Both the position numbers and the translations under genes were made by a program. A DNA stretch of 64,000 bases from Methanoculleus sediminis (GTDB lineage Archaea; Halobacteriota; Methanomicrobia; Methanomicrobiales; Methanoculleaceae). The stretch is taken from positions 223,033 to 287,032 of the forward strand of contig NZ_JXOJ01000002.1 in the NCBI RefSeq assembly GCF_001017125.1. Direction: 5' to 3'. The notes beneath the pieces were generated by a model that did not search any database, was not told the DNA's origin, and saw nothing but the letters and a program-made list of their open reading frames with translations. Position 1 is the stretch's first letter. Each line of letters starts with the position of its first letter. Shown here piece by piece: positions 34,398 through 41,319 of the stretch.

Positions 34398-35216
34398 ATG
34401 AAACAGATCGCCCTCTACGGGAAGGGGGGAATCGGGAAATCCACCACTGCAGCAAACCTTTCGGCGGCACTCGCGGGAGAAGGGCTCGATATCCTGCAGA
34501 TCGGGTGCGATCCGAAGCACGACAGCACCCGCATGCTGATGCACGGGACCTGGATCCCGACGGTCCTCGACCTCATCCGGGAGCGCGGAGACGAGAGCAT
34601 CACCGCCGACGACGTGGTCTACCGGGGCTTTCGCGGCGTGCGCTGCGTGGAGGCCGGAGGGCCCGAGCCCGGGATCGGGTGCGCCGGCCGGGGGATCATC
34701 GCGACGTTCCAGCTCCTCGAACGCCTGGACGCCCTCAAAGGCGACGTGATCGTCTACGACGTCCTCGGCGACGTCGTCTGCGGCGGGTTTGCGATGCCGA
34801 TGCGGGAGGGGTACGCCCAGGAGATCTACCTGGTCACCTCCGGCGAGTTGATGTCCATCTACGCGGCAAACAACATCGCAAAAGCCATCGCCCGCCTCTC
34901 GCGCCGGGTGCGGAGCAGGTGCACGCTCGGGGGCGTGATCTGCAATGCAAAGAACATCGAGGGCGAGCGGGAACTCGTGGAGGAGTTCGCCCGCCGGATC
35001 AACTCCCGGCTCATCGCCTACATCCCCCGCTCGAGGGTCGTCCAGGTCGCGGAACTGCAGAAACAGACGGTCGTCGAGTACGCCCCCGAGTCCGACCAGG
35101 CGGCGGTCTACCAGGAACTCGCACGCACGGTCTACGGAAACGAGACGACGAGCATCCCCACACCCCTCGAGATGGATGAACTCGAATCCTTCGCCCTCGA
35201 ATTCGTCCAGGTTTGA
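34398..35216 (+). CDS. NifH-like nitrogenase reductase family ATPase
   Basis: A 272-residue dinitrogenase-reductase homologue. Walker A is GKGGIGKST (8-16). The two Cys that bridge a [4Fe-4S] cluster in the dimer are Cys95 (GIGCAGRG) and Cys128 ([10 protein letters not shown]). The protein should donate electrons with ATP hydrolysis to a component-1-type partner. [14 protein letters not shown] and the end [12 protein letters not shown] look more like true NifH than like CfbC of coenzyme F430 synthesis. The downstream component-1-like gene overlaps it by 41 bases. The nif genes needed for nitrogen fixation are not present around it, so the substrate is open. Confidence 0.85.
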
Positions 35217-36243
35217 GGGGTGTACCCTGACCGGAGCGCTCTCGGTACTCACGGAGGTACGGGACGCCGTCTCCGTCATCCACGGCCCGGCGGGATGCAC
35301 GCACCACAATTTCTCTCTCCTGCACGCCACCCACCTTGCAAACGACCGGCTCGAGGTCCCCCGCCTTCTCTCCACCCGCTTAACGGAGAACGGGATCATC
35401 TTCGGGGGCGAAGACGCGCTGGAGGAGACTATCGCGCAGGCGCTCTCCCTCTCGCCCGCCTCCGTCTTCGTCCTCTCAACCTGCATCGTCGAGACGATAG
35501 GAGACGACGTCGCGGCGATCTGCGCGAAAAGCCGGGGCGTCCCGGTGATCCCCGTGCCGACCGCCGGGTTCCTCGGGGGGGTCTTCGAGACGGGGGTGAA
35601 AAACGCCCTCTCCTCCGTCGCATCGCTTGCCGGTCCTGCGGACGCAAAAACCCTGTCGGCAAACCTGATCGGCGAGAAGAACCTGGAGTACGGCGTCGAC
35701 GAGAACGCAGCCGAGATCGAGCGCCTTCTTTCCCGGCTCGGCATACCGGTCAACCTCCGGTTCGTGCGGGGGCTCGGTACACTGGATATCGGACGGCTCG
35801 GCTCGGCCGCCGTGAATATCCTCCGGGAACCGGCGCTCCGGCCGGTCGGTGAAGACCTCGAACAGAGGCTCGGCACGCCGTACGTCGACTCGTTCCCGGT
35901 GGGTCTTGCCGGAACGTGCCGGTTCCTCGAAGAGGTCGGCCGGATCTGTGGGATCGATGCATCGATCGCCGTCGAGGAGGAACGGGCCCACCAGGCAGAG
36001 ATGCTCGGGCGGTTCGACGATATCGCCGGGAGCCGCGTGCATTTCCAGTCCCCCCACCCCATGCTCAGGGGCGACCCGGGTGCGGAGGCGATCTGCACCG
36101 AGTGCGCCGAAGCCCTCGATCTTTCCGTCGACCCGGACGGGGCGGCGATCCCGCTCCCGTATCCGGCGCCCGTCGGGACCGCCGGTCTTGGACGGATGCT
36201 GCACCGGTGGCGGGTGCTGATCCGGGAGAAGCGGCGGGGGTGA
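35176..36243 (+). CDS. Short nitrogenase component-1-like protein (NifD/E-like)
   Basis: About 355 residues of the nitrogenase component-1 superfamily, shorter than NifD (about 480). The three P-cluster-type Cys are kept: Cys16 (FEGCTLTG), Cys41 (HGPAGCTHH) and Cys103 ([11 protein letters not shown]). [16 protein letters not shown] matches the common component-1 segment. The best in-frame start is ATG 35176 inside the NifH-like gene, so the two are coupled; the homologous part begins near residue 12. No second component-1 gene follows directly. Substrate unknown; a role in tetrapyrrole, cofactor or sulfur-compound reduction is possible. Confidence 0.75.
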
Positions 36244-38404: not shown

Positions 38405-39571
38405 CTAGAAGAATTCCGCACCCTCTCCCCCGGGGCGCCGGTTCCGGTTGATGCAGGCGTTGAGCACCTCTTCCATCAGCCGGAGCGCCCCTTCCACCCC
38501 GGCGATCGCGTGGGAGGAGAGAGCGACCCTGTCCCGGAGAGGCGGCGTCAGCCCGACGAACGCGGCGCCGGGAGCGATCGCCGCCTCGTAGGTGGAGCCG
38601 AGGATCAGGTCGGGTTCGGCGCCACGGATCGTCTCCCGGATGACCGAGAAGTCGGTCGTATGGATAATACCGCCACCGGATGTACCGGGACTGTTCCGGG
38701 CGGCGACGCAGGCGATCTCGGCACCGAGATACCGGTCGAGGAGGTCGGCGGCAAACGAGGCATACGCGGCGCCGCCGGCAATCGCCACGCGGGGAGGGTC
38801 GAACCTCCTGAGGTACTTCTCGCAGGCTTTTCGGATCCGGGCATCGGCCCATGCGACTTCGTCCATGACCGGGCGGATATCAGCACCGTCGATCTCTGCG
38901 CCAAGCCGCTCGAACGCCTCACCGACCGCATCGAGGCCAAGGAGCGAACCGCAAGAGGTTCCGACGCCGCTCGCGAGATCCGGGTCCGTCCCGACGGTGA
39001 ACGGCGCCGCCCGGCGGGTCGCGGCGTAGCGGTCGAGGCAGAAGGTGGTAGCGACACCGACGCCTGCAAGGCCGAGCAGGCGCCGCGCCTCGAGGGCGTT
39101 TCCCCGGCAGAAGGGGTCGGTGCGGCAGATGCCGTCGATGTTGACGCCGAGAACGTCGGGGTCGACCTCCGGCGCGATCGTATCGAGAGCACGGCGGTAG
39201 CCGGCCTCGAGGTCGCCGAGGAAGCCGGGGCTGTCGACGACGAGGACCTGCCCCTCATCGGCAAGGTCGCCGATATCCTCACCCATGATCGCGGGGACGC
39301 AGGTGTTGACCACGGCTATCCGGGCGTAGCGGCCGGCGAGTTCCCGGATCACTTCCGCGAGGCGGGACTCCGTCCCGAAGATGATCTCGTTCTCGACGAG
39401 GAACGTCCCGTGGATGGGAACCCCGACGAGCGATGCGGGGTAGAAGTAGCACCCGCTCGAACCGTGGACGACGACGGCGACGTCCTCGAATCCCGAGAGA
39501 CAGGCGACCGCCCCGGTCATCGCACAGGGCCAGAGGGGGTTCTCGCACGGTGTCTGCTGCTCTTCCGGCAT
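38405..39571 (-). CDS. Second nitrogenase component-1-like protein (NifK/N/VnfE-like)
   Basis: A 388-residue component-1 superfamily protein. The cluster-binding Cys triad is kept at Cys16 (LWPCAMTG), Cys41 (HGSSGCYFY) and Cys91 (VNTCVPAIMGEDI); the first two fall at the same residue numbers as in the 35176-36243 protein. LVENEIIFGTESRLAEV is the shared segment. Further Cys lie in ICRTDPFCRG and GTSCGSLLG. It has its own promoter, opposite to the NifH-like operon about 2.2 kb away. It could be the missing second subunit of that system or a separate reductase. Confidence 0.75.
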   Translation of the reverse strand: MPEEQQTPCENPLWPCAMTGAVACLSGFEDVAVVVHGSSGCYFYPASLVGVPIHGTFLVENEIIFGTESRLAEVIRELAGRYARIAVVNTCVPAIMGEDIGDLADEGQVLVVDSPGFLGDLEAGYRRALDTIAPEVDPDVLGVNIDGICRTDPFCRGNALEARRLLGLAGVGVATTFCLDRYAATRRAAPFTVGTDPDLASGVGTSCGSLLGLDAVGEAFERLGAEIDGADIRPVMDEVAWADARIRKACEKYLRRFDPPRVAIAGGAAYASFAADLLDRYLGAEIACVAARNSPGTSGGGIIHTTDFSVIRETIRGAEPDLILGSTYEAAIAPGAAFVGLTPPLRDRVALSSHAIAGVEGALRLMEEVLNACINRNRRPGGEGAEFF

Positions 39572-39608: not shown

Positions 39609-39748
39609 ACAGTACCTTGAGGGAAATGGCTTTCTTTGTTGAAACCGTTTTCGGGTCATCCTCCCTACCTTGGCGAAATTGATACTAGAATAGGCTTGTC
39701 CCTGGAATCAGTTTTTTCTTCGAGCGTGTTCCCATGCAGTGAACCGTG

Positions 39749-40024
39749 GTGGCTATCGCCACTGGGGGTGGGGCTGACGGGGAGTGCGATGGGCGGAACG
39801 CCCGGAGCTCGACCACCGTCAGGTGGGGAGGGGGTCTCCCCCTCCCCTGTCTCCACCTCACTACAATCCGCACATCCCATCAACCCCACCCCACCCGCGC
39901 TTCGCGCTCCTCAATCGCACCTGACGGTGCTTCAACTCCACTCCTGGCGGAGTGTCGCACTCCGCACCTTCGGTGCTCAAACTCCTGCTGTTCCAGCAGT
40001 CGTTCCCCGCCCCAAAGGGCGGGG
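39749..40024. repeat. Array of about ten perfect short hairpins
   Basis: Stems read in order: GTGGC/GCCAC (39749-39762), GGGCG/CGCCC (39791-39803), CCACC/GGTGG (39813-39826), a 10-pair GGGGAGGGGG/CCCCCTCCCC (39825-39847), GCG/CGC (39897-39907), GCACC/GGTGC (39917-39930), CACTCC/GGAGTG (39939-39954), GCACC/GGTGC (39964-39976), CTGCTG/CAGCAG (39985-39999) and CCCCGCCC/GGGCGGGG (40005-40024). Loops are mostly 3-5 bases. GGAGTG at 39949 can also pair with CACTCC at 39958-39963, an alternative fold. Confidence 0.75.
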
Positions 40025-40197
40025 GCAGTCATGGCGATATGCGATGGACACAACCAACATCCGGAGCACGAGCACCGCAAGTGCGCAACCCGGTGGAAAG
40101 TCGTGCCCAAGAGTTCCTCTGGGTTGCAAACGTCTGGCGCAAGCAGGCAGGGCTTGAGCAAAGCCAAATAAAAACAGGAGACGAAAGGCCGGCGGCC

Positions 40198-41319
40198 CTA
40201 CACCGTCTTCACGAGCGAGGCAAGGTACCGCCCGACCTCGCTCGTCTTCTTCGCGCCGCCCATATCCCGGGTGACGTAGCCGTCGAGGATGCTCCTCTCG
40301 ATTGCCGCGAGAACAGCCGCCGCCGCCTCGTGCTCGCCGAGGTGGTCGAGGAGCATCGAGCCCGCCCAGACGGTGGCGAGCGGGTTCGCGACGTCCTGGC
40401 CGCGGTACTTCGGCGCGGAGCCGTGGATCGGCTCGAACATCGAGGTGCCCTTCGGGTTGATGTTTCCGCCGGGGGCGAGCCCGAGCCCGCCCTGGATCAT
40501 GGCCCCAAGGTCGGTGATGATGTCGCCGAACATGTTCGGGGTGACGACGACGTCGAACCACTCGGGGTTCTTGACGAACCACATCGTGACGGCGTCGACG
40601 AAGTTGAACTCCGTTGCAACGTCCGGGTAGCCGGCGGCGACGTCGGTGAAGACGTCCCGCCAGAGGCCGTAGACGTCGGAGAGGACGTTCGCCTTGTCGA
40701 CCGACGTGACCTTCTTCTCCCTTCGTTCGGCAAGGTCGAAGGCGTAGCGGATCGCCCGCTCGGCACCCTCTCGCGTGACGACGCCGATCTGGTAGGCGAG
40801 CTCTTCGGCGTCGGTCTCGACGTCGAGGCCGAACCTGACGCTGTAGATGTCGCGGACGACATCGAGGGTCTTTTTCTCGCGTTTTCCGGCGAACCGCGAG
40901 CCGATCCCGACGTAGAAATCCTCGGTGTTCTCCCGGACGACGACGAAGTCGATATCCTCGGGGCGCTTGTTCGCGAGCGGCGTCGCAACCCCGTCGAGGA
41001 GTTTGATCGGCCGGAGGTTGACGAACTGGTCGAAGTGGAACCGGATGGCAAGCAGGATGCCCTTCTCGAGGATCCCGGGCTTCACCCGGTCGTCGCCGAT
41101 GGCGCCGAAGTAGATCGCGTTGAACTTCGAGAGCTCGGCGATATCCTCCTCGGTCAGGAGCTCGCCGGTCGCGAGGTAGCGGTCGGCCCCGATATCGAAG
41201 TCGGTCCACGCGATATCGAACCCGTAGCGCTCTCCCGCGGAATCGATGACCTCTTTACCCGCAGCAACGATCTCGGGGCCGATCCCGTCCCCGCCGATTG
41301 CGGCTACTCGGTGCTGCAT
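40198..41319 (-). CDS. leuB: 3-isopropylmalate dehydrogenase-type beta-decarboxylating dehydrogenase
   Basis: A 373-residue NAD-dependent enzyme. It shows [10 protein letters not shown], the Arg cluster in [30 protein letters not shown], the catalytic Tyr/Lys region [12 protein letters not shown] and VDKANVL, and [10 protein letters not shown] plus [10 protein letters not shown]. It would oxidise 3-isopropylmalate in leucine synthesis or, in methanogens, homoisocitrate-type substrates for coenzyme B. It overlaps leuD by 16 bases. ATG 41319 is the natural start. Confidence 0.87.

What the first reader, a model, noticed from the sequence alone, without database searches (positions are those of the whole stretch)
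39749..40024. Run of about ten perfect hairpins in a non-coding gap
Ten short palindromes with 3-10 base-pair stems and mostly 3-5 base loops follow one another in about 275 bases, with short CAA/TCC-rich joints. Two neighbours can refold into an alternative pair (39939-39954 versus 39949-39963). This density is far beyond chance and suggests a structured RNA, a protein-binding array or the trace of a mobile element.
Basis: seen in the sequence. Interest (0 to 1): 0.6.

Follow-up and report, generated by a model that had tools for sequence, protein, structure and literature searches.

The report
Hairpin-packed nested mobile element in Methanoculleus
The run of hairpins is one copy of a repeat found dozens of times in the methane-producing archaeon Methanoculleus, a small gene-less jumping element that carries a palindromic core which has collected still smaller hairpin inserts; its G-rich arm was published in 2021 as a possible G-quadruplex regulatory signal, so that signal is better read as part of mobile DNA.

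Summary
In detail: ten short hairpins in about 275 non-coding bases, well above chance. It is not an isolated structured RNA. The block is one copy of a dispersed repeat (about 39 sites in this 2.49-Mb Methanoculleus genome) found across Methanoculleus and nearly absent elsewhere. It has three nested layers. (1) A shell, about 39628-40165, ending in inverted repeats related to GGCTYTGTTGAAACCC; eight intact relatives elsewhere in the genus have perfect 8-bp target duplications, and a complete IS5-family element with the same ends was found. The window copy is thus a decayed gene-less transposon (MITE). (2) A palindromic core, 39731-40108, with 30-nt inverted ends; its orientation flips between species at conserved sites. 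Its G-rich arm is the published Methanoculleus 'rPQS' G-quadruplex motif. (3) Two-hairpin modules of 36-47 nt that insert, nest and expand in tandem, differ between species about 95% alike, and supply most of the hairpins noticed. Stems are kept and loops are enriched in GNA/GNNA types that favour DNA hairpins; no strand bias points to RNA. What moves the modules and the shell-less cores is unknown. New here: the composite anatomy, the transposon link, core inversion and module dynamics.

The parts
39628..40165 (+). Outer unit: decayed gene-less IS5-type element (MITE) carrying the palindromic core
   Evidence: Aligns end to end (query 39634-40169) with a second copy in the same genome, L066, 73% over 558 nt; intact relatives have perfect 8-bp target duplications. 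No recognisable target duplication is left here.
39628..39646 (+). Left outer inverted repeat, decayed: GGCTTTCTTTGTTGAAACC (intact form GGCTYTGTTGAAACC)
   Evidence: Sequence; pattern match
40150..40165 (-). Right outer inverted repeat, decayed: GGGCTTGAGCAAAGCC (intact form GGGTTTCAACARAGCC)
   Evidence: Sequence; pattern match
39731..39760 (+). Left end of the palindromic core, 30 nt, type B (CCCATGCAGTGAACCGTGGTGGCTATCGCC)
   Evidence: Conservation of 150 core ends drops to background about 30 nt from the start of GGCGATA
39764..39784 (+). G-rich arm GGGGGTGGGGCTGACGGGGAG: the published rPQS with CTGAC loop; its fourth G-run is displaced here by module 1
   Evidence: uninterrupted in the orthologous copy of G042
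39785..39830 (+). Module 1, 46-nt two-hairpin insert, absent from the orthologous copy in G042
   Evidence: Clean presence/absence at a site about 95% identical
39825..39847 (+). G-run/C-run hairpin of the core, 10-bp stem
39855..39883 (+). Variable linker of the core
   Evidence: Alignment A1
39884..39892 (+). CCCCACCCC arm that pairs with GGGGTGGGG (39765-39773)
   Evidence: Structure counts on 30 core copies
39897..39907 (+). Core hairpin GCGC-TTC-GCGC, replaced as a block by GGCC-TYC-GGCC in other copies
   Evidence: GCGC form in 7 of 29 aligned copies, GGCC form in 22
39913..40004 (+). Modules 2 and 3, two further two-hairpin inserts between CTCCTC and CCCCGCCCC of the core
   Evidence: Module-free cores read CTCCTC-CCCCGCCCC at this point; module grammar
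40005..40024 (+). Core hairpin CCCCGCCC/GGGCGGGG
40033..40108 (+). Right end of the core (GGCGATA at 40033-40039 plus 40088-40108, type A'), split by a degenerate module 4 at 40040-40087
   Evidence: same arrangement in G042 and L066

Best explanation
The hairpin run is the palindromic core, with nested two-hairpin modules, of a roughly 540-bp non-autonomous transposable element (MITE) of Methanoculleus. Shown: the outer shell has IS5-type terminal inverted repeats and 8-bp target duplications in intact relatives, an autonomous IS5-family element with the same ends exists in the genus, and the window unit aligns end to end with a second copy elsewhere in its genome. Inferred: an IS5 transposase supplied in trans moved shell and cargo to this site, after which the ends decayed. 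The core is a genus-wide repeat that also occurs, more often, without the shell, sits mostly between convergent genes, and can lie in either orientation at one site, probably by recombination or gene conversion between its inverted ends. The 36-47 nt modules enter the core at recurrent points, nest in each other's loops and expand in tandem; their enzyme, if any, is unknown. The hairpins most likely matter as DNA (cruciform, single-strand hairpin, G4), not as an RNA product. A cellular role, if any, would be secondary, such as a roadblock or insulator downstream of genes.
For: About 39 related sites in the own genome. All 24 same-genus genomes of the first set match and none of 16 from other genera of the order; an exact pattern hits 24 of 26 same-genus genomes and few outside, one other genus of the same family excepted; named carriers are Methanoculleus. 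Perfect 8-bp duplications flank eight intact shells: L376 CTAATTTC, L379 GAAAAAAC, L381 CTTTTTTG, L382 GTATAATG, L383 GGATAATC, L384 GAAATATG, L387 CGAGGTCC, L389 CTTTTTCC; of these L376, L379, L387 and L389 have an assembled core. Complete IS in L370: GGCTCTGTTGAA...TTTCAACAGAGCC ends, 8-bp duplication CAAGCATC, 297-aa DDE transposase, IS5 family at 230.9 bits against a cut-off of 140. Window unit against L066, 73% over 558 nt. Among 20 relatives examined the site is occupied by this element only in the sister genome G042; several have a 66-93 nt gap instead. Module gain or loss between close genomes: window/G042, L142/L145, L377/L388. Core inversion with unchanged outer flank in L168, L178 versus L171, L177, L179. 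22 of 35 sites convergent against 7 of 64 gene pairs in the window, P = 1e-7.
Against: The window copy itself has decayed outer ends and no target duplication, so transposition to this exact site is inferred from relatives. In G000 only the window copy and L066 share the shell; core copies in general show no target duplication at their 30-nt ends (5 of 155 versus about 3 by chance), so the spread of shell-less cores is unexplained. G000 has no relative of this transposase at E up to 1e-20.
Confidence: 0.85

Rival explanations
1. A structured non-coding RNA or RNA regulatory element, dispersed in many copies, with conserved stems.
For: Stable folds on both strands; 96% of stem cells paired and 20 two-sided changes against 5 in shuffles.
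Against: No Rfam match. G-T and A-C mismatches number 20 and 12, with 8 of the G-T cells in one variant block, so no strand is clearly favoured. The core lies in either orientation at the same site. Published work found both strands equally used (PMC8044849). GNNA tetraloops are GNYA rather than GNRA, 18 to 5.
Confidence: 0.07
2. A host DNA site: protein-binding or G-quadruplex/hairpin element acting as terminator, insulator or chromosome-architecture site between convergent genes, kept by selection and only incidentally mobile.
For: Strong bias to convergent gene pairs; positions such as L060 and L039 occupied in many species; oligonucleotides of related motifs form G4, hairpin or triplex in vitro (PMC8044849).
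Against: Presence or absence varies among close relatives, and about half of the G000 sites have no counterpart found in G042. Convergent bias is also what simple avoidance of promoters would give. Copy number differs widely between species.
Confidence: 0.2
3. A REP/BIME-type array or IS200/IS605-like single-strand element moved by a Y1 (HUH) transposase.
For: Two-hairpin modules, insertion without clear target duplication, mosaic of units, extragenic position.
Against: No Y1_Tnp (PF01797) in G000 or in most carriers, including complete genomes; most genomes of the genus that have it carry few copies of the element. No GTAG tag.
Confidence: 0.08

Closest known systems
rPQS of Methanomicrobiaceae (Chashchina et al. 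2021, PMC8044849)
   Same: The G-rich arm GGGGTGGGG-CTGAC-GGGGAG and the following C-rich tract; intergenic; about half between tail-to-tail genes.
   Different: That paper treats a ~40-nt motif as a possible regulatory quadruplex; in the passages read it does not describe the right half, the inverted ends, the modules, inversion, presence/absence or the transposon shell.
MITEs of IS5-family insertion sequences
   Same: No gene inside; terminal inverted repeats shared with an IS5-family element; 8-bp target duplications in intact copies.
   Different: Carries a large palindromic core that exists independently and hosts nested hairpin modules; the window copy has decayed ends and no duplication.
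Bacterial interspersed mosaic elements (BIMEs) / REPs (PMC2817692, PMC3733652)
   Same: Extragenic, mosaic, palindromic, multi-copy, variable unit number.
   Different: Archaeal; no GTAG tag, no Y1/RAYT transposase; different unit grammar (CGA-hairpin-GGAGYNNGAG-hairpin-CGA).

Membership tests
IS5-family MITE | Terminal inverted repeats shared with an autonomous IS5 element | tested here: met
   L370 IS ends GGCTCTGTTGAA/TTTCAACAGAGCC match the shell ends; transposase is IS5 family. In the window copy the ends are recognisable but decayed.
IS5-family MITE | Target-site duplication of constant length | tested here: met
   Perfect 8 bp in eight intact relatives; not found at the window copy, so met for the family, not for this copy.
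IS5-family MITE | No transposase gene inside | tested here: met
   No gene called between 39571 and 40198.
IS5-family MITE | Mobilisation in trans by the IS5 transposase | not testable with these tools
   Needs a transposition assay.
rPQS (Chashchina et al.) | Four G-runs with CTGAC central loop followed by a C-rich tract | tested here: met
   Present in the G042 ortholog and in most cores; in the window copy the fourth run is displaced by module 1 (39785-39830).
REP/BIME | Associated Y1 (RAYT) transposase | tested here: not met
   PF01797 absent from G000 and most carriers.
REP/BIME | GTAG or CGTC tag at the foot of the palindrome | tested here: inconclusive
   Module hairpins are followed by GTCG on one strand, but stem lengths (mostly 4-8 bp) and the two-hairpin grammar differ from the CGTC families as described.
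Known structured RNA (Rfam) | Match to a covariance model | tested here: not met
   No match at gathering cut-off in the window.

The most novel reading that the evidence does not exclude
The 36-47 nt two-hairpin modules are a self-standing class of minimal mobile DNA that inserts as single-stranded hairpins without target duplication and without a Y1 transposase, spreading through palindromes, through other MITEs and into each other, and expanding in tandem.
Probability: 0.2. Interest if true: 0.75.

Novelty: new variant of a known kind. Interest (0 to 1): 0.45.

Why it matters
A published archaeal G-quadruplex motif, so far discussed as a regulator, proves to be one arm of a larger palindromic repeat that is in part carried by an IS5-type MITE. 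Statistics on its position should therefore be read with mobile DNA in mind. The system also offers a natural experiment: the same site in many species with the core in either orientation and with or without modules, which makes the origin and spread of palindromic repeats in archaea testable by comparison and by long-read sequencing.

Tried and rejected
Rfam and tRNA searches of the window gave nothing. A Y1/RAYT origin was tested and not supported. Inverted pairs of core ends 3.6 kb apart in G042 and G020 were checked as a possible autonomous element; in G042 they flank what looks like an ordinary PAS/sensor-kinase-type gene (read by eye). Target duplications at the 30-nt core ends were sought in 155 copies and not found above chance. 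Viral contigs: only 1 of 2.9 million matches the G-rich pattern and 2 the core end, so viruses are not an obvious vehicle. Other shells shared among the remaining G000 copies were sought and not found. Literature searches in the held library found no description of this composite; papers outside it were not seen.

Full report
Observation. Seven non-overlapping hairpins with stems of 5 bp or more and loops of 3-5 nt compare with a mean of 1.05 in shuffles, and both strands fold 6 standard deviations better than shuffles. The gap between leuB (40198-41208, minus strand; isopropylmalate dehydrogenase family) and a nitrogenase-cofactor-like gene (38405-39571, minus strand) holds no called gene.

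A repeat family. A DNA search of the own genome returns 146 matches in about 39 clusters. All 24 same-genus genomes of the first set have it and none of 16 genomes from other genera of the order. An exact pattern of the G-rich hairpin over 120 genomes of the order hits 24 of 26 same-genus genomes, one genome of another genus of the same family (16 hits), and a few others once or twice. Named carriers in the genome collection are Methanoculleus and MAGs placed near it, plus two Streptomyces hits that look like chance. The own genome has 15 contigs and 2,489,717 bases, which fits the draft of M. sediminis S3FaT (PMC4841145); this identification is an inference.

The core. Thirty module-free cores align over about 145 nt: TATCGCCA, a G-rich arm GGGGnGGGGCTGACGGGGAGGGGG with its C-rich partner, a variable linker, CCCCACCCC, a GGCC or GCGC hairpin, a CCCCGCCCC/GGGGCGGGG hairpin, and TGGCGATA. 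The structure is paired in 96% of cells, with 20 two-sided changes against 5 expected in shuffles, but these are block replacements (GGCC to GCGC and a shift in the C-rich hairpin), so few independent events. From GGCGATA outward, 150 ends share about 30 nt in two types, then conservation stops. Both types occur at either end and can be mixed in one copy, so the outer part is not kept as a helix; a protein site is the more natural reading (inference).

Known part. The G-rich arm is the rPQS of Chashchina et al. 2021, CTGAC type, reported as intergenic, about half tail-to-tail, and able, as related oligonucleotides, to form G-quadruplex, hairpin or triplex in vitro (PMC8044849). My own count in G000 agrees: 22 of 35 sites convergent and 2 divergent, against 7 and 6 of 64 gene pairs in the window (P = 1e-7). 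Gene calls here come from a simple codon model, and at least one flank (L039) may be misassigned.

The shell and the transposon link. The window unit aligns end to end with a second G000 copy, L066, over 558 nt at 73%; the alignment stops at inverted repeats related to GGCTYTGTTGAAACC. Intact relatives of this shell in other Methanoculleus have perfect 8-bp target duplications in eight cases, four of them with an assembled core inside; L377 and L378 also carry shell and core, with 6 and 7 of 8 matching bases. A complete element in G041 (L370, 505-1513) has the same ends, an 8-bp duplication CAAGCATC and a 297-aa DDE transposase of the IS5 family; a second full-length copy of the transposase is in G022 and fragments are in G012, none in G000. 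So the shell is an IS5-type MITE. In the window copy the ends are decayed and no duplication is left; that it arrived this way is inferred from its relatives.

Presence, absence, inversion. At the window site the sister genome G042 (about 95% identical) has the element, in the same orientation; the other 19 relatives fetched do not have this unit there, and several have a 66-93 nt gap instead. In L079 a different, shorter arrangement with related modules fills the gap. Of 39 G000 sites about 18 have a counterpart in G042. At the L039 site five species share the left flank and the outer core end, but the interior runs one way in L168 and L178 and the other way in L171, L177 and L179. At the L060 site both orientations also occur. 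Three of about 13 clear G000/G042 comparisons (L035, L050, L052) differ in orientation; in L035 the breakpoints lie further out. Inversion by recombination between inverted ends, or conversion from another copy, fits; site-specific recombination is not excluded.

Modules. The units CGA-hairpin-GGAGYNNGAG-hairpin-CGA were found 113 times after removal of duplicates, with 40 different first stems. They are absent from orthologous copies in close relatives: module 1 of the window is missing in G042; L142 has three modules that L145 lacks; L388 has three that L377 lacks at the same site. They also sit inside a separate 210-bp MITE, one 47-nt copy plus one 36-nt copy in L034 and about 22 tandem 47-nt copies plus the 36-nt copy in L342, with the empty form in L343 and L345. 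No constant target duplication is seen. Loops inside elements are GNA in 34 of 56 triloops (50 of 257 outside) and GNNA in 23 of 50 tetraloops (32 of 193 outside), P = 3e-9 and 4e-5, mostly on the same strand in both hairpins of a module. From general knowledge, such loops closed by C-G are unusually stable in DNA; GNYA outnumbers GNRA (18 to 5), though this last contrast with the outside (18 to 14) is not significant (P = 0.15).

Mechanism. Most likely an IS5 transposase acting in trans moved a shell with its core; recombination among core copies flips and converts them; modules accumulate by an unknown route, with slippage for the tandem arrays. The hairpins are best seen as DNA structure and as a by-product of, or signal for, this mobility. 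A host role at gene ends remains possible.

Limits. No transcript data, no binding data. G handles carry no species names. The whole own genome was not available as a file. Some core sites may have been missed, because only part of the first-look candidates were scored.

Noticed in passing
L343 1500-1725, L345 1501-1709, L342, L034: A separate 210-bp MITE family (GGCTTTGTTGAAACCC...TTTCAACAGGGCC) with 8-bp target duplications, which in L342 holds about 22 tandem copies of a 47-nt module.
   Followed up: partly
L200 300-1150 (G003): Three core elements in tandem with a period of about 180 nt; partial tandem orders (right half before left half) also in L040, L043, L055, L068.
   Followed up: no
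L041, L044, L050, L065: Runs of N inside module arrays of the own genome: gaps in the record at tandem repeats.
   Followed up: no
core ends, all loci: The two end types look as if a 12-nt inner segment were inverted (TGGAAAGCCGTG versus CACGGTCCACTG).
   Followed up: no
L178, L175, L180, L147: Short cores with the left hairpin only, closing directly on the inverted ends: possible ancestral or deletion form.
   Followed up: no
window 35176-36243 and 38405-39571: Two nitrogenase-cofactor-like (NifE/NifN/CfbD-type) proteins, far below the curated cut-offs of every named family.
   Followed up: no
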